Below, piece after piece: positions 1 through 8,155 of a stretch of 64,000 nt of DNA (position 1 is the first letter of the stretch; every line of letters starts with the position of its first letter). A program made the position numbers and the translations under genes. The notes below the pieces were generated by a model. The model did no database searches. It worked only from the letters and a program-made list of their open reading frames with translations, and was not told where the DNA came from. Origin of the DNA: Rhizophagus irregularis (Eukaryota > Glomeromycota > Glomeromycetes > Glomerales > Glomeraceae); NCBI RefSeq assembly GCF_026210795.1, contig NC_089431.1, positions 3,224,001 through 3,288,000 on the forward strand. The letters run 5' to 3'.

Positions 1-1800
1 AGGAGTAACAGTATATGCCATAATTTCTTCAGCTATGCCAGTATCTAGAATAAAGTTGCTTAAGGTAAATATAAATATTTTTTTTCCGTATATTCATATA
101 ATAAAATAAGGATACGGGTCCTTAATGATTGATGTTCAGATTGAAGTCCTCCTAGCTTATTAATAAATTCGCGAATCTGCATAACTGTCTTGGCTTGGTG
201 TCTCTCCTATTATTTAATGATAAAAAGTATATATATTAATTGCTATTGAGATTATAAAGATTAAGCTTTTGTCAGCGTACCTCGTAATTTTCATTAATTC
301 TTCTTGCGACTCTGTTAAGGACTCCGCCCACAACAGCAAAATTCATATCTCTCAATTGAACAAATAGTCTATCACTAGAATTGAGTGGAATTTTTTTTTT
401 TGGCGGGAGTGGAGGGTTGTGACGTTGTTGATGCGGCATTCGATGTTGATGTTGCTGCTGCTGGAGCTGATTTTTGTGAAGCAGGGCCAACAATAGCTGA
501 ATCAACTTCTACGTGTGAAGCTCTTATACCGAACACTTCATCTATCAACCCTTCGTAAGTTAACTGCGTGCAAAGAGGAGAAATGAGATCAACAGAGCGA
601 TCTAAGATAATTAAAGAATCTACGTTTTGAGATACTGATAATGTGGATGACGGGTCGTCAACAGCAACTTCTTTACGCATACGAAGCAACATGTCAGCTA
701 GGTGCTAGATTAACGAATAAGAATTAATATACTAATATGAATAATTTCAATCGAATAGATGTAATCTTTCTTACTTTAGCACAATCTCCTTTCCCAATAA
801 CTCTTGGAATAAGCCCGAACTTCGTCTGGAGCTTCATAAGTGCTCTTGCCGCATAATAAATTGAAGTATAATCACCATCCTATATTTAATTTTTTTTTTA
901 AAAAAATTCATAATTTTGTTCTAATATTACTTATAACCTTTGCTGTCATAAACAATAAAATACCAGATAGAGTTCTTTAAAGGTATTATCTAACTCTAAA
1001 GATAACAAATCATCTTCAAATGGTATTAAGTCAAGATGATATTCTCCGATCGTAATCTGTAAGAATCAACCCAGTTAAGGAAATTATTTGGCTTAATTAA
1101 GTTTTGAGATTTATAAAATTTTTATAAAGAAATATGAAATTGATGATTTGATTTAAAATAAGGATATCTCCAAAGACGCCAGCTTCTTCCAAGACTCTTT
1201 CACAAATCATAGTCCTTCGAGGGACAAAGAAAAGATTGTATTCATAATTTGATACAACATCTTTTTGATGATGAGCTATATGTTCTACGAAAACATAATG
1301 ATAAACAAAGTCAAAAAATTATGGTCGATATAGAAACAAAAATAAATATACGAAATTTATACCAGCAATATATTTCATATAATTCAGTTGCGGGCGACAT
1401 ATATAAATCAAACTTTTTAGCTCAGTCTCTAAAGGTCCTTGTTGAAGATAATGTACTTTTTCTACTCCATGTTCCTATTATTAGCATCTTATTAGTTTTA
1501 GAATTTCAAATTACAAATACAAATTTATGTAATTTCTTGAAAATAACTACTTTTAATAAAGAAAACCCAGCTATCAAACTTAAAGGCCCACTGATATTTG
1601 GATCTAGCACTAAACATTTTTTTCCTCTAACCTATTTATTTTTCCAAATATGTAGTTAATAAATAGGTCAATTTATTAAACAAAAGTTTTTTATTTTGAA
1701 AATAACATACTGAATCTAAAACATTAGTTAATTCTTTTCTCGCCAAATCTCTTAAAGAATTAACGTTCAAAGAAGAATGTGTATTTCCCAAGTGAGACAT
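1..1800 (-). CDS. vps33: Vps33, Sec1/Munc18-family subunit of HOPS/CORVET (3' end outside window)
   Basis: The Sec1/Munc18 protein of the HOPS and CORVET tethering complexes guides SNARE assembly at endosomes and the vacuole. Nine exons are readable: 1800-1711, 1631-1551, 1474-1363, 1284-1168, 1058-964, 879-775, 704-281, 206-116 and 44-1 (continuing out of the window). The start codon at 1800 gives MSHLGNTHSSLNVNSLRDLA. Recognisable Vps33 blocks follow: CLVLDPNISGPLSLIAGFS, FFVPRRTMICERVLEEAGVF, LDLIPFEDDLLSLE, the ILDRSVDLISPLCTQLTYEG signature, LRDMNFAVVGGVLN, and HTGIAEEIM at the window edge. Two introns (1059-1167 and 45-115) have U12-type signals; the others look U2-type. The long exon contains an 11-T run (391-401) that throws the frame by +1; with ten bases the frame continues, so this is probably an assembly or sequencing slip. 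The identity is secure from motif order; the exon ends come from splice sites and frame continuity. Confidence 0.93.
45..115 (-). other. U12-type GT-AG intron in vps33
   Basis: Read on the minus strand the intron starts with GTATCCTT, carries ACCTTAAG as branch-site candidate about 15 nt before the end, and ends in TTCTAG. Splicing gives LRT-HTGIAEEIM, which aligns with the conserved Vps33 HTSIAELI block. Length is 71 nt. The branch site is one base off the best consensus. Confidence 0.8.
1059..1167 (-). other. U12-type AT-AC intron in vps33
   Basis: Read on the minus strand the intron opens with ATATCCTT and closes with TTCTTAC. The sequence TTTCCTTAAC, a match to the minor-spliceosome branch site, lies with its branch A about 15 nt before the 3' end. 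Only an AC end restores the frame (GGA G|AG ATT, giving GVFGEITIGEYHLDL); using the nearby CAG end breaks it. Length is 109 nt. Confidence 0.88.
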
Positions 1801-1976: not shown

Positions 1977-3758
1977 TTAATCATCATCATCGGAATCATC
2001 TTCACAAGGTTGATAATATGAAGGATATACATTTGTTACTTTATCCCAATACCAAAATCCATTAGATAACTTATGAAAATCGGCAGTGATACGCATTCCG
2101 GGCATAGCATAAATTCCTAAATCTGAATTTACACAGATATAAAAAGGTTCCGCAGTAGACACATCAAATTCACGTAACTTTATTTTCTTGAGATCAGTTT
2201 CTTGCGTGTTGTGTAATTCATTAGAATTTTGAAGGGTTTCATCTGCGGAAGCCTCCGATATATCCCTTTGAAAAGGTTCAACTCCAATAATTTCACATAT
2301 CAAAGCGGTTTTAGAATCTTCTTTAACTCGGGTCAACTCTTCGACTGCATTAGCGCCAAATAACTCTCTAATGAGTTGTTTTCCTTCCCCCTTTGATATT
2401 CCAATCATTGACGCTACAATTTCTTCTCCATTCCAAGGATCATCAAGCATACCATATAATTCTCCTCCGAATAATAAAGAACACGCCTTGTTGAGTTTTC
2501 CTGGCGCATTCTGTGCGAGCGCTTTGCAATTTGGTAATTCTTCTTTTGCTTTGTTCGCGATTTGCAAAGCCGTTTGCATATCTTCTTCATACTCCGGACA
2601 TACCTTATGGTTATGTAAATAATTTAAAAATGATATCACAACCTGAGGTCCTTCGCGAAATTGGTCCATTTGAACATAACCAGATTTATCGATTAAAAAG
2701 CTAGACAAGTAGACGCGAACAATGTACGTGAAGTTTACTTCCATGTCATCTGCTTCATCGTCAATATAATCTGTTGCGCGGCGTGCAGCAATTTCTTCTG
2801 CGTCTGCGTCTGCGTTATCGAGTCCATCTTGACCTAAGAAAGACTTAGGACCAGTGCTAATTCCTCCGAAACGTAGATAAGAATTGAAAACCTGATTCCG
2901 AGTAGAAGTAAATTTACGGTTCTTTTTATATTTCTGAACAGCTATTTCCACGCGATGTGTTAGTGATTTCGATCTATTCAAAAATAAAGAACATCACTTT
3001 AAGGTTAGTTTAAAATTTATATGGCGGATTGAACAAAATTTTGCAATTTCAACGTACGGATCATAGAGTCTATTCTCATCTTCTTCAATTGGTCCAATAT
3101 CATGAAAATCTAAATTAGACTCATCATTTCCAGATTTCTTCTTCTTCTTCTTCTTCTTCTTCTTCTTCTGCTGAGGAATTGCTACGTCAACGGTCTCGCT
3201 GGTCGAAGCGGTAGAATTATTTGCATCATTTTTTGAATTCGTATCGTCTAAATTTTTATCTTCCGTATCTTCTTCTATTGTTACTTTGCGATCCACAGTT
3301 TTGTCAGTTGAAGGGGGATCATTTGTGCCATTAATCAAAGTTGTATCACTCTTGTTATCGTTTAAATTTTTATTTTCTTTTAACAAATTTCCTTCCGGAT
3401 TCTCGTCTTCCTTCATATTCACAATTTCACTGGTTGAAGAGGGATCGTTTGTGTCATTGACCAAAGTCGTATCACTTTTATTTTCGACCAAGTTTTTATT
3501 TTCTATTAATAAGTTTTTTTCCGGATTTTCGTCTTCCTTAGTTTCGCCAGTTGAAGAGGCCATGTCATTAATTGAATTCATATCAATTTTATTCTCTTCT
3601 GAATCTTTATTTTTTTCTAACAAGTTTTGCCCCGAATTTTCGTTTTCTATTGTTACTTTTTTATTCTCCACATTAACCTTTGACGTGTTTTGGCCTATAT
3701 CATTCGATTCTTTTGTGAGTGCATTTGTAAAAGCTTCTTGTTGACTTTGTTCTGTCAT
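1977..3758 (-). CDS. arb1: Arb1-like Argonaute siRNA chaperone (ARC) complex subunit
   Basis: In fission yeast Arb1 is part of the ARC complex, which holds Argonaute with duplex siRNA before passenger-strand removal and is needed for heterochromatic silencing. Exon 1 is 3758-3058, exon 2 is 2973-1977, with an 84-nt GT-AG intron. Splicing joins RLYDP to SKSLTHRVEIAVQKYKKNRK, rebuilding the Arb1 family block (lysine run, then LYDP-S, then a basic RxEIAxQKYxxxRKF helix followed by YLRFGGISTGPKSF). The N-terminal 190 residues are low-complexity, Asn/Glu/Ser-rich with repeated NPE-NLL-ENKNL segments, ending in an 11-Lys run encoded by a trinucleotide repeat. The C-terminus is acidic (DDSDDDD). Neighbours share strand but no operon is implied. 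The family call rests on remembered motif order. Confidence 0.8.
3138..3169. repeat. CTT trinucleotide microsatellite encoding poly-Lys in arb1
   Basis: About ten tandem CTT units on the plus strand (AAG on the coding strand) encode the 11-residue lysine run just before the Arb1 core domain. Such a tract is expected to vary in length between isolates. Confidence 0.85.
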
Positions 3759-4646
3759 GGTTGACTTTAAAAAATTATTTAATTAAATTATTAAAATATT
3801 TATGAAAAAATCGTTATAATTTACCTATTTTTATTTTATTTTGTTTTTAAGAAAAAAATACCAGTCAAAAAAGAGCTTGCTAAGGTTTATCAAAAAAAAG
3901 TATCCCGTTTTATAGGTTATCTAAGCCCAAATCAATAGTCACATGTAATTGCCTAAAACAACTATAAATTACCCGATACCCAGCTTACCCCAATTTACGG
4001 AGAACAATTACGCAATTACATAAACATCTATTGATAATACGAAAAAGGAATCCTTACAAAAACATAGGTTAACTGTTATTGTAGACAAATTAAGAATTTG
4101 TATTACTGCGGAAAATATCACTACGAATCTAATTGGTCACGCAATGACTTTATGGAAAAACATCACAAAGACAAAAATCGGTACTTTTTATGAGGAACAA
4201 TTGTCATAAATGAACAATTGCAAATTTATTAGTAATATTATTGGATAGGAATGTTTTTTCCTTGTCTTAATTTATTCTTCGACGTCTAAATTAGAAACTG
4301 AAAATCAATGTCGTCAAAGTCAATAACTTTGTCTCTGATGTATTTTGTTTGAGTATATATGTTCCGGAAAAATAAAATTCATATTATTTTCATTCACCGG
4401 ATGAAAAATCTAATACTAGATTCGTAATACGAGCCTTGTTAAATTTATAAATTAATAATTTCTATCGGAATGGGAAAACATTTTCTCATCAAAGATTTAC
4501 TTTTAAAATTTACGTGTAATCACGTGATTAGATTTTGTCTGTGCCTCATTCGCGACGCGAATGTGCGGTGGCAAAAGAGTGCTATTATAACCATAAGGAG
4601 AATAAAATTAGTATTGATGTATGATATACAATTATGACTCTATAAA
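3759..4646. other. intergenic region with a weak coding-like relic
   Basis: There is no intact gene here. On the plus strand about 60 codons are open up to the TAA ending near 4209 (they include KHRLTVIVDKLRICITAEN and MTLWKNITKTKIGTFYEEQL), preceded in frame by stops. This may be a decayed gene fragment, but the family is not recognised. The rest is AT-rich and includes the promoter of arb1 and the 3' flank of the WW-domain gene. Confidence 0.35.
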
Positions 4647-7600
4647 TTAATAGCTTACTTTGAATAGGTGCATTCCCTTGCCTCCACAAATGGATTTCAC
4701 TACCTCATATTCTTTTCTTGGATTCAAAAATTTCTTTTTGACCCCACCTTGATTCACTCTTGAACTTGCACGACGGAACAGGAAGATGGAGACCGGCTCA
4801 GTCTCGGCCGTTCCATATTCGACAGGTTCGTCTGACCGCCAAGTATCTTCGTCAGATTCTTCGTCAGCATTTTGTTCATTGAAGGTTTCATAACCTTGGC
4901 CGACTGTCGTTTGATTACCAGATTCCACTTCGTGATTATGAACTTCATTAGTGGGAAGTTCTTCCACTTTCATACTTTGCTCTTCACCGCAATACTGACG
5001 TTCTTCTTCGTGAACAGTTCTCACCCGAGGCTGAGTAAATGTTGGTAACTCACGTCCAACTCCAGAACGCCTACTTCCCGGTGAAACATTTTGTTCAATC
5101 CCAAACGAATTATACATTCCCGACCTATTTGAACGAATTGGAGACCCAGGAAATGTTGGTGTCAATCCATTGTTGTTATTACCGCTTGGACTAGAGATGT
5201 TACGTGGGTCACCGAGTGAACGACTAGAGATAAATTCATCATTGCGGAATCCGTCATTGCGATCGTATATATCAACAGAACCCCCCCGATTAAATGGACC
5301 TGGATTCGATCTTAAAGAAGACATTTGAGGAGAATGTGGTTGAGGTCCAACATAAGAACCTCTTCGTGGGCTTGATTGTATCCCATAATCAGAACTAAAT
5401 CGGCGCTCATTATATTCGGAAGAAATTGAACGATGTGGAGGTGAGAATGCCGCCGACGCTCCGGGAGAAGGTTGAGATTGTGGCAATGAGGGCGAAAACA
5501 AAAAAGTAGAGTTATTTCGAGGTAGTCTAGACGATAGCTCTGACTGTTGATCAAATGAAATTTCATCTTTTAAAGAAACTTCTTTATTAATAGAGTCATT
5601 TTCGTTAACGGTCGAAGTTTTATCTTCGTGCCCAATTTGAGGATTAATGTCTGAATTTGCCACGACACTCTCACCGTTTTCATTCAAACGGATCTTTTTA
5701 CGAGGCTCATCCTCATCTTTATGAGGATCATAATCGATGTTTTTGTTACCATCATTTTGAGTCTGCCGATTTTTCCCTGTTTCGGGATAGTTCCATTGAG
5801 ATTCACGAGTTTGTGTATTGAAATAATAATCTTTGTTCCTACTAGACTTGCATTTTATCCAGGGATGAGGAGGTAAAGAATCTTCATCCTCGTTTACTGG
5901 AACTCTTTTCGACTCCTTTATAAATTGGTCTTGAGGATCTCTATTTTTTTCTTCTTGCATATGTGCTTCTTGCGAATAATCCCGAATATTATCACGTTGA
6001 TTGTCCATGAGAGTTTGAGCAGGTCTCTCAGTATCAGAACGTCGCGTAGATTCAGACCTACTTGTACGAGGCACTGGATCATCTTCCATATCCCGTCTTT
6101 TTTCCAATTCTCGTTGATGGCGATCATACAAATGCTTTTGCGGATCCGTTCTCTCAACGGAGTTACTCCGACTTTCGTGGTCATCACGAACTCGATCTCT
6201 CATATCCCGATCATAATCAACACGATACTTATCAATGTTATAGTCTCTTTCGTACTCCCGAAGTGATCGACGATCAGGTTCTTTTAGATGGTCCGATAAA
6301 GGTCTATAATGGTCAGGTATACCGACATTACGATCATGGGTGGGCGACATTCGGTCTTCTTTACGATTCGTTAAATCTCTATCCTGATCTCTATTTACTA
6401 CAACTCGATTACCATCTTTAGAAGGATAATCTTCACGATGGCGTTGCTCTCTCTCTTTATCCCTGATACGATAGTCAGGAAGACGTTGATTGAAAGAATT
6501 TGCATCACCCCTTTGTTCCCGATCATAATAAGCCTTACGCTCATTAAGTTCGATGTCTTCCCTCTTTCTTTTATCAGGTCGATCATGTTCAGTAAGAACG
6601 TTAGGCTGGATATTTCGTTGTCTAGGTTCTTTATCTCGATTATCTTGGTAAACAGAATCATTTTGAGTTTCGTTCTTAGAGCGGACAGCTGGTTGCCGTT
6701 CATCTCTTCGAATTGGCTCTGGTCTTAAAGCTTGATCACGGTGGTAATGACCATCCTTCTCTCGATCGCGAGGTGGAGGATCTCTTGGATTTCTCTCAGG
6801 AATACCAACATTACGAGGATCATCGAGTCTACGAGCATTAGATATTCTTTCATCTGAACGCCGAAAAGTAACATCTATTTGGTCATTTCTGCGGAGATTT
6901 AATGAATCTCTATCTTGCACTTTAAGATCTCTAGAAGAGATTTCCTTTTCTTTTGACAAATCTCTGATCCTTGGATCGCGATCTCTATTAGACAAATCAT
7001 CACGCTGTCGGGATATTCGATCACGATCTCTTTGGAAATCTTGATGCGGTTGCCATTCGCGAACATCATCACGTGGCCGAAGTTCTCGATCTTCTCTCTT
7101 AATTCTTTCAGGTGATCGTGTTCTACTTGGAGGTTTGTCGGAGTCGCTTGGAGATCTACTTGTAGCGCCTCGGATAGTACTGTTTGAAGAAGTTTCAGCA
7201 TTAGGGGTTCGGCTACCATGATCATTTCGATTCCGTTCAAATTCGCGTTGAAATCGATCCCTTTCGTTTCGACGCGGAATATCCAAATGGGCTTTATCTT
7301 CCAACAAACTTTTATTATACCTATCTTGACGTTCTCTTTCTCGTCTATCTCGGTCGAAACTTCTGTCGTCATGCGCTCGATCAGTAGCTATTGCACGATT
7401 ATATCTTTCTTCTCTTTCGCGTTCACGAATATCTCTTTCATATAGTCGGGTTCTACGATCATCTACGTGAGACTGTTGAATAGAAGTTTCCCGGCTGGGA
7501 CGGTCATAGCTCCTATCAGAATTACGTCCATCGTCAGAATTTGTAGCACGATTACGAATTCTTGATGGTATTTCTTTGTTATCAATGTCCTTATTTCTTC

Positions 7601-8042
7601 CGTGTTCCTTTCTTTCACGATCTTTATATGAATCAGGAATAGGTGACATATTCCTATCACTACGTGAAGTAAAAAGTTGGTCTGATTCGCCAAATTCTTG
7701 ATCCGCAAATTGTTCACCCATAAACGAAGGGTCTTCTTGATCTTCGTCTTCAATGCCCATCAAATAATCATCATCAGCTTGGATCGATACGACATCTTCT
7801 TTTGCTATATCTGATTCATGATCAGATTGCGCTAACCCAGAAATATGTTCATATACAGCATTATTTTGTTGTTGTACAATAAACTCGGTCGAACCGACAA
7901 AATTCTCTGACGTTTCATCATTCCCACCATCTTTAATCTCGTTTAAGACTCGTTCGGCATTTTGAACATTGTATTCTGCAGGTGACTGTGGTGAAATATC
8001 AGCTTTGGGCATTTCCTGAAAAGTTTTTGTATTATCTTCCAT
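4647..8042 (-). CDS. large Arg/Asp-rich protein with one WW domain
   Basis: This is a single open reading frame of 1131 aa. Residues about 1-130 are acidic. Residues about 130-710 are very rich in RD, RE, DR and SR dipeptides, like the RS/RD domains of splicing and transcription-coupled factors. A WW domain follows at about residues 722-755 (HPWIKCKSS, then DYYFNTQTRESQWNYP), with both signature tryptophans and the YYF core. The C-terminal third is Ser/Pro/Gly-rich with many short SPG and SPR motifs. WW domains bind proline-rich ligands, and this architecture suggests a nuclear RNA-processing adaptor, but I cannot place it in a named family. The last 45 residues are basic and hydrophobic and could in principle read into an unspliced intron. 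The start at 8042 is the first in-frame ATG and gives an acidic N-terminus. Confidence 0.85.
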   Translation of the reverse strand: MEDNTKTFQEMPKADISPQSPAEYNVQNAERVLNEIKDGGNDETSENFVGSTEFIVQQQNNAVYEHISGLAQSDHESDIAKEDVVSIQADDDYLMGIEDEDQEDPSFMGEQFADQEFGESDQLFTSRSDRNMSPIPDSYKDRERKEHGRNKDIDNKEIPSRIRNRATNSDDGRNSDRSYDRPSRETSIQQSHVDDRRTRLYERDIREREREERYNRAIATDRAHDDRSFDRDRRERERQDRYNKSLLEDKAHLDIPRRNERDRFQREFERNRNDHGSRTPNAETSSNSTIRGATSRSPSDSDKPPSRTRSPERIKREDRELRPRDDVREWQPHQDFQRDRDRISRQRDDLSNRDRDPRIRDLSKEKEISSRDLKVQDRDSLNLRRNDQIDVTFRRSDERISNARRLDDPRNVGIPERNPRDPPPRDREKDGHYHRDQALRPEPIRRDERQPAVRSKNETQNDSVYQDNRDKEPRQRNIQPNVLTEHDRPDKRKREDIELNERKAYYDREQRGDANSFNQRLPDYRIRDKEREQRHREDYPSKDGNRVVVNRDQDRDLTNRKEDRMSPTHDRNVGIPDHYRPLSDHLKEPDRRSLREYERDYNIDKYRVDYDRDMRDRVRDDHESRSNSVERTDPQKHLYDRHQRELEKRRDMEDDPVPRTSRSESTRRSDTERPAQTLMDNQRDNIRDYSQEAHMQEEKNRDPQDQFIKESKRVPVNEDEDSLPPHPWIKCKSSRNKDYYFNTQTRESQWNYPETGKNRQTQNDGNKNIDYDPHKDEDEPRKKIRLNENGESVVANSDINPQIGHEDKTSTVNENDSINKEVSLKDEISFDQQSELSSRLPRNNSTFLFSPSLPQSQPSPGASAAFSPPHRSISSEYNERRFSSDYGIQSSPRRGSYVGPQPHSPQMSSLRSNPGPFNRGGSVDIYDRNDGFRNDEFISSRSLGDPRNISSPSGNNNNGLTPTFPGSPIRSNRSGMYNSFGIEQNVSPGSRRSGVGRELPTFTQPRVRTVHEEERQYCGEEQSMKVEELPTNEVHNHEVESGNQTTVGQGYETFNEQNADEESDEDTWRSDEPVEYGTAETEPVSIFLFRRASSRVNQGGVKKKFLNPRKEYEVVKSICGGKGMHLFKVSY

Positions 8043-8155
8043 TTCCTCTCTTTGTATGTCCCTTGCACTATTTATTTTTATTTTATTTTTTTTATTAAAT
8101 AATTAACGCATAATCAAATAACAATAAACCTTTAAATTATTTTGATCTACAACTC

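What the first reader, a model, noticed from the sequence alone, without database searches (positions are those of the whole stretch)
45..1167. Two U12-type introns in one vps33 gene, one of them AT-AC
Introns 1059-1167 (ATATCCTT to TTCTTAC, branch TTTCCTTAAC) and 45-115 (GTATCCTT to TTCTAG, branch-like ACCTTAAG) carry minor-spliceosome signals, while the other six introns of the gene look U2-type. Frame continuity across each junction restores conserved Vps33 blocks, and for the first intron only an AC end works. Most fungi have lost U12 introns; some early-diverging Mucoromycota-related lineages keep them. A gene with two, of both subtypes, points to an active minor spliceosome in this fungus.
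Basis: partly seen in the sequence, partly recalled or inferred. Interest (0 to 1): 0.8.

Follow-up and report, generated by a model that had tools for sequence, protein, structure and literature searches.

The report
Two minor-spliceosome introns in fungal vps33
A vacuole-sorting gene of an arbuscular mycorrhizal fungus carries two introns of the rare kind cut out by the cell's second splicing machine, one with unusual AT-AC ends that most of the public gene models examined from related fungi appear to get wrong.

Summary
The window lies in an assembly that matches Rhizophagus irregularis DAOM197198. On its minus strand is vps33, with 13 exons and 12 introns; eight introns lie in the window. 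Introns 4 (1167-1059, AT-AC) and 8 (115-45, GT-AG) have perfect U12 donors (8/8); the ten others score 3-5/8. Intron 4 also has a perfect branch site; intron 8's (7/9) is no better than chance. Both splices align to solved Vps33 proteins. U11, U12, U4atac and U6atac genes and a U11-48K homologue are present. New here: an in-frame GT-AG decoy (1177-1057) flanks intron 4, so 'only AC works' holds only for the AT donor. The decoy would delete residues of a motif whose two glycines are kept in 100 of 100 other homologues. Yet 15 of 18 public Glomeromycotina Vps33 models lack residues exactly there, against 0 of 100 others. I read this as systematic mis-annotation of a conserved AT-AC intron. R. 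irregularis was reported in 2023 to have about 205 minor introns and all four snRNAs, so the main claim is not new. A genome-wide AT-AC count failed, and no RNA reads were available.

The parts
1711..1800 (-). vps33 exon 1 (start codon at 1800)
   Evidence: splice model; PDB alignment
1551..1631 (-). vps33 exon 2
1363..1474 (-). vps33 exon 3
1168..1284 (-). vps33 exon 4, ends in GVFG plus first base of a codon
1059..1167 (-). intron 4: AT-AC, U12-type, phase 1, 109 nt
   Evidence: donor 8/8, branch 9/9
1160..1167 (-). U12 donor ATATCCTT of intron 4
   Evidence: strongest predicted U11 and U6atac pairing of the 12 donors (U6atac tied with intron 8)
1074..1082 (-). U12 branch site TTCCTTAAC of intron 4
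1057..1177 (-). in-frame GT-AG decoy pair (GTCTTT ... TTACAG) that would delete VFGE; its product is seen in public models of R. irregularis (P0004, P0005) and R. clarus (P0002)
964..1058 (-). vps33 exon 5 (EITIGEYHLDLIPF...)
775..879 (-). vps33 exon 6
281..704 (-). vps33 exon 7; contains an A11 run (about 391-401) that shifts the frame in this assembly
116..206 (-). vps33 exon 8
45..115 (-). intron 8: GT-AG, U12-type, 71 nt; phase 1 once the exon 7 homopolymer shift is allowed for
   Evidence: donor 8/8, branch 7/9
108..115 (-). U12 donor GTATCCTT of intron 8
59..67 (-). weak branch-like site TACCTTAAG of intron 8
   Evidence: 25% of shuffles do as well
1..44 (-). vps33 exon 9, continues beyond the window into L006 with exons 10-13

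Best explanation
The vps33 gene of Rhizophagus irregularis has two U12-type introns removed by the minor spliceosome, one AT-AC (1167-1059) and one GT-AG (115-45), among ten U2-type introns. U11 and U11-48K, then U6atac, would recognise the donor RTATCCTT; U12 pairs with the branch site; cleavage at AC or AG restores the reading frame. Shown: the sequences, frame and protein continuity, and the presence of the snRNA genes. Inferred: that these introns are spliced this way in vivo, and that the AT-AC intron is shared by most or all Glomeromycotina.
For: Gene model and frames. Alignments across both junctions to solved Vps33 structures. Donors 8/8 against 3-5/8 for the other ten; intron 4 branch 9/9, reached by 0.15% of shuffles. 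Predicted donor pairing to this genome's own U6atac is -5.4 kcal/mol for introns 4 and 8, against -2.2 or weaker for the other ten and -2.8 for the decoy. U12, U6atac, U4atac and U11 genes above cut-off. U11-48K homologue at C28:665046. The public R. irregularis DAOM197198w protein P0001 has exactly these two junctions. At the intron 4 junction 15 of 18 covered Glomeromycotina models lack at least two of ten residues (16 of 19 before dropping P0037, whose model starts at the junction), against 0 of 100 other listed homologues; at the other eleven junctions the Glomeromycotina total is 11 of 199. R. irregularis is a published minor-intron-rich fungus.
Against: No RNA reads were available. Intron 8's branch site is weak (7/9); introns 1 and 3, with U2-type donors, also reach 7/9 and intron 11 reaches 8/9. 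Free pairing of intron ends with the U12 branch stretch did not separate the two introns from the others: intron 6 scored best. U11 pairing of donors 7 and 12 comes close to that of donor 8. Three public R. irregularis models (P0004, P0005, P0010) do not show the intron 4 junction. U4atac is only just above cut-off (55.0 against 53 bits). Searches for the AT-AC-linked proteins CENATAC and TXNL4B found neither. Residues near junctions 1 and 2 are also missing from 18 of 99 non-Glomeromycotina models each, and near junction 11 from 14 of 98, so gaps at a junction are not rare in themselves.
Confidence: 0.9

Rival explanations
1. Intron 4 is really a U2-type GT-AG intron at 1177-1057 (GTCTTT...TTACAG); the U12-like sequence inside is a relic of a converted intron, and the protein truly lacks VFGE.
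For: The pair is in frame and its exact product is seen in three public models: two of R. irregularis and one of R. clarus. Conversion of a U12 AT-AC intron by a shift of splice sites, moving it by three residues, is described for Trichinella / C. elegans (PMC2846911, passages).
Against: It removes residues of a G-V-x-G motif whose two glycines are kept in 100 of 100 listed non-Glomeromycotina homologues. The donor has C at +3, while all ten U2-type introns here have A. Donor and branch are still perfect U12 matches. For two species, R. irregularis and Gigaspora margarita, one public model keeps VFGE and another lacks it, which points to annotation rather than biology.
Confidence: 0.05
2. Intron 4 is U12-type, but intron 8 is a U2-type intron whose donor resembles RTATCCTT by chance, or is a U12 intron on its way to U2-type.
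For: Weak branch site (7/9, 25% of shuffles), matched or exceeded by three introns with U2-type donors (1, 3, 11); GT-AG ends fit both spliceosomes.
Against: A perfect 8-base donor at a fixed GT splice site has about 3e-4 chance; none of the ten other donors exceeds 5/8; predicted U6atac pairing equals that of intron 4.
Confidence: 0.12
3. The machinery is present but decayed, and these introns are retained or spliced poorly.
For: One of the two U11 loci looks degenerate at its 3' end; TXNL4B and CENATAC were not found.
Against: U12, U6atac, U4atac and one U11 match their families from end to end and keep their pairing stretches; the coding frame continues over the whole gene apart from one homopolymer shift; minor-intron splicing was measured from R. 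irregularis transcriptomes (PMC10639083, passages).
Confidence: 0.03

Closest known systems
Minor (U12-type) introns of Rhizophagus irregularis, Larue and Roy 2023 (PMC10639083; abstract, sections 13, 30, 34, 41 and passages read)
   Same: Same species; same four snRNAs; minor introns there follow the animal/plant consensus and favour phase 1; vesicle-mediated transport genes over-represented among the hosts (33 of 288 human-Rhizophagus orthologues, 2.57-fold).
   Different: I could not see whether these two vps33 introns are in their list. Their caller adjusts boundaries only when the annotated ones are non-canonical (section 13), so a GT-AG decoy model like those seen here would, I infer, hide the AT-AC intron.
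U12 introns of Phycomyces and Rhizopus (PMC2846911, passages read)
   Same: Mucoromycota-related fungi with both AT-AC and GT-AG U12 introns (Phycomyces 8-9 AT-AC and 8-12 GT-AG by two methods; Rhizopus 1 AT-AC, 2-3 GT-AG).
   Different: Far fewer introns; vps33 not named in the passages seen.
VPS33A / fungal Vps33 (Sec1/Munc18 family, HOPS subunit)
   Same: Alignment through both junctions, gapless in Chaetomium.
   Different: Intron positions in other species could not be compared; no DNA of other eukaryotes was at hand.

Membership tests
U12-type (minor) intron, intron 4 | Donor RTATCCTT at the splice site (consensus recalled; also stated in PMC2846911) | tested here: met
   8/8, ATATCCTT
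U12-type (minor) intron, intron 4 | Branch site TTCCTTRAY (recalled) close to the 3' end | tested here: met
   9/9, about 16 nt from the AC end
U12-type (minor) intron, intron 4 | AT-AC ends required by the reading frame | tested here: met
   AC end keeps frame and motif; with the AT donor the AG two bases further breaks the frame (sequence); a different donor with that AG is in frame but deletes conserved residues
U12-type (minor) intron, intron 8 | Donor RTATCCTT | tested here: met
   8/8, GTATCCTT
U12-type (minor) intron, intron 8 | Branch site TTCCTTRAY | tested here: inconclusive
   7/9 TACCTTAAG; 25% of shuffles reach it
U12-type (minor) intron, both | Splicing depends on U11/U12/U6atac in the cell | not testable with these tools
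   needs RNA and depletion
Organism with a minor spliceosome | U11, U12, U4atac, U6atac genes | tested here: met
   U12 68.9 bits, U6atac 79.9, U4atac 55.0 (cut-off 53), U11 71.9 and 55.5
Organism with a minor spliceosome | Minor-specific proteins | tested here: inconclusive
   U11-48K homologue found; SCNM1 zinc finger, CENATAC and TXNL4B not found by exon-wise searches without a positive control; ZMAT5, RNPC3, SNRNP35, SNRNP25 reported by PMC10639083, not re-tested
Vps33 (Sec1/Munc18) | Full-length similarity to Vps33 | tested here: met
   Two parts match 4jc8 at E 1.4e-69 and 3.5e-101; P0001 Vps33p of R. irregularis 100%

The most novel reading that the evidence does not exclude
AT-AC introns are widespread and old in Glomeromycotina but hidden from annotation because gene callers replace them with nearby in-frame GT-AG pairs. 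Published minor-intron counts for these fungi would then miss much of the AT-AC class. A bolder form: AT-AC splicing persists here without recognisable CENATAC/TXNL4B, which in humans are tied to AT-AN introns. Only this one site was tested.
Probability: 0.35. Interest if true: 0.55.

Novelty: new member of a known kind. Interest (0 to 1): 0.36.

Why it matters
It gives a concrete, checkable case of both minor-intron subtypes in one housekeeping gene of a model arbuscular mycorrhizal fungus. It also shows how gaps in public protein models can point to unannotated AT-AC introns. If the pattern is general, catalogues of minor introns in early-diverging fungi, and of the proteins they encode, need correction.

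Tried and rejected
A genome-wide count of AT-AC introns by a donor + branch pattern was sent 15 times and never answered ('busy'). After stated a limit on long patterns for this genome I stopped, so no count is given.

Free pairing of intron ends with the U12 branch stretch did not discriminate (intron 6 scored best) and is not used as evidence. The DIM1-family gene found is TXNL4A, not TXNL4B. CENATAC by Pfam profile and by protein, and SCNM1 by Pfam profile: nothing, but no control rang either. TXNL4B searches hit only the TXNL4A gene weakly. A protein database search with it named no fungus among the 120 best of 694 hits, most of them animals, so it says nothing about fungi. The zinc-finger profile that found the U11-48K gene also rang in one of 14 control genomes, Sulfolobus acidocaldarius; the identification rests. 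One extra junction, Funneliformis P0043 at intron 8, has four additional residues; left unexplained. P0037 was dropped from the recount because its model starts at the junction; with it the count is 16 of 19.

Literature: searches. One search (VPS33, minor intron, U12; 171 papers with at least two terms, 15 listed) listed one paper holding 'vps33'; its passages concern a Vps33b intron after the stop codon in mouse cells, not described as U12 (PMC5063418, passages). One search (U12 introns + arbuscular mycorrhizal) found no paper. PMC9887622 (passages) places TXNL4B as sister to TXNL4A and does not name Rhizophagus. Supplementary files and the intron database of PMC10639083 could not be read, so I cannot say whether these two introns are already listed.

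Full report
What the window is. The window is C3:3224001-3288000 of an assembly of 146,748,485 bases in 32 contigs. The length of contig C13, 5,085,394, equals the scaffold N50 given for the 32-chromosome nanopore assembly of Rhizophagus irregularis DAOM197198, GCA_026210795.1 (PMC10234402, passages and one section read). The total published there is 146,773,001 bases, about 24.5 kb more; I did not explain the difference. The Vps33 protein deduced here (its two parts joined over a homopolymer, see 'noticed') is 100% identical to Vps33p of R. irregularis DAOM 197198w (P0001). The fungus is therefore an arbuscular mycorrhizal one, Glomeromycotina.

Gene structure. vps33 lies on the minus strand, starts at 1800 and runs out of the window at position 1 into L006. 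I placed 12 introns by protein similarity; eight are in the window. Intron 4 is 1167-1059 (109 nt, AT-AC) and intron 8 is 115-45 (71 nt, GT-AG). Both fall after the first base of a codon; phases after exon 7 are counted in the frame that remains once the homopolymer shift is allowed for. The two parts of the protein match Chaetomium Vps33 (4jc8, E 1.4e-69 and 3.5e-101) and human VPS33A (4bx9, 5.4e-71 and 1.6e-82), with no gap at either junction in Chaetomium and one single-residue gap beside the first in human. A genome search with the first 301 residues finds no second vps33: eight matches, seven in this gene and one weak (29% identity, E 5.8e-4) on C28. The C-terminal part was not searched.

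Are these U12-type? Scored against RTATCCTT the donors of introns 4 and 8 are 8/8; the other ten are 3-5/8. By base composition, the chance that at least two of 12 placed donors carry ATCCTT is about 8e-6. Intron 4's branch site TTCCTTAAC is 9/9, reached by 0.15% of shuffles. Intron 8's TACCTTAAG is 7/9, reached by 25%; introns 1 and 3 also have 7/9 and intron 11 has 8/9 (4.5% of shuffles), so branch score alone would not single out intron 8. With this genome's own snRNAs, donors 4 and 8 have the best predicted U6atac pairing (-5.4 kcal/mol each; the other ten -2.2 or weaker) and the best U11 pairing (-8.2 and -6.7; next -6.3 and -5.1). Free pairing of intron ends to the U12 branch stretch does not separate them. 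A joint donor + branch + AC/AG scan of the window returns intron 4 only, with 0.2 expected from 20 simulations; it allowed one branch mismatch and so misses intron 8.

The machinery. One U12 (C19), one U6atac (C17), one U4atac (C13; 55.0 bits against a cut-off of 53) and two U11 loci (C20 and C30) pass Rfam's cut-offs. A CHHC zinc-finger gene on C28 contains REELLAEQRDYKRRRKSYRAKNIKITQRTPTQVHRDIIAAYMEDF in joined exons, which matches human U11-48K in the PDB at E 2.5e-11. The DIM1-family gene on C30 is TXNL4A. CENATAC, TXNL4B and SCNM1 were not detected; these searches look exon by exon and had no positive control, so they do not show absence. In human cells CENATAC loss causes retention of AT-AN minor introns in particular, and TXNL4B is its strongest interactor (PMC8280824, passages).

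The decoy, and a signal in public annotations. Ten bases upstream of intron 4 is a GT (GTCTTT), and directly after its AC end is an AG. The pair 1177-1057 is in frame and removes VFGE. At the intron 4 junction 19 of the 20 are covered and 16 lack at least two of ten residues; without P0037, whose model starts there, 15 of 18. Of the 100 others, 0 of 100 do (0 of 94 named) (Fisher 2e-16, ignoring relatedness). At the other eleven junctions the Glomeromycotina total is 11 of 199 without P0037, at most 4 of 18 at one junction. The others reach 18 of 99 at junctions 1 and 2 and 14 of 98 at junction 11. The three intact ones are P0001 (R. irregularis), P0003 (Glomus cerebriforme) and P0042 (Gigaspora margarita). 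The first and third species also have models that lack residues there (P0004, P0005, P0010; P0014). Eight of the 20 models show the decoy-type product EEAG|ITI, EEAG|ITL or EEEG|ITL, and others lose more residues. The affected set includes Geosiphon, Ambispora, Acaulospora and Paraglomus. The two glycines of G-V-x-G at this place are kept in 100 of 100 of the other homologues. The simplest reading is a conserved AT-AC intron at this site across the subphylum, which GT-AG-only gene callers mis-model. I saw no DNA from those species, so this is inference.

What is known. Larue and Roy 2023 (PMC10639083: abstract, sections 13, 30, 34, 41 and passages read) report 205 minor introns (0.272% of 75,377 annotated) and all four minor snRNAs in R. 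irregularis. They find a subset of minor introns at positions shared with other fungi, animals and plants, and enrichment of vesicle-mediated transport among host genes. The kind of thing is therefore published. Their program adjusts boundaries only when the annotated ends are non-canonical (section 13), so AT-AC introns hidden by a GT-AG decoy would, I infer, escape it. Whether these two introns are on their list I could not see.

Verdict. The added value is the decoy and the annotation gap, across the subphylum, at the AT-AC site.

Noticed in passing
window 391-401 (minus strand, vps33 exon 7): A run of 11 A shifts the frame and gives a stop shortly after; the DAOM197198w protein P0001 reads four lysines before IPLNSSD here, implying a longer run. 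Probably a homopolymer under-call of the nanopore assembly.
   Followed up: partly
L005 (G000:C30:407421-407547): Second U11 locus; 5' and middle parts match but the 3' stem is poor (55.5 bits), perhaps a degenerate copy.
   Followed up: no
window 1977-3782, minus strand: The neighbouring gene encodes Arb1, a subunit of the Argonaute siRNA chaperone complex (PF09692, E 1.1e-64 for 1980-2993); the open frame upstream (2994-3782), probably its first exon, has a long lysine run.
   Followed up: partly
window 4650-8054, minus strand: Long charged, arginine-rich open frame with one WW domain (PF00397, 27.0 bits against cut-off 26.9).
   Followed up: no
P0043 (Funneliformis caledonium Vps33 model), intron 8 junction: Four extra residues at the site of the GT-AG U12 intron, perhaps a misplaced splice site in that model.
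   Followed up: no
P0005, P0010 (R. irregularis Vps33 models): Both lack about 24 further residues of exon 7, so these models have more errors than the one at intron 4.
   Followed up: no
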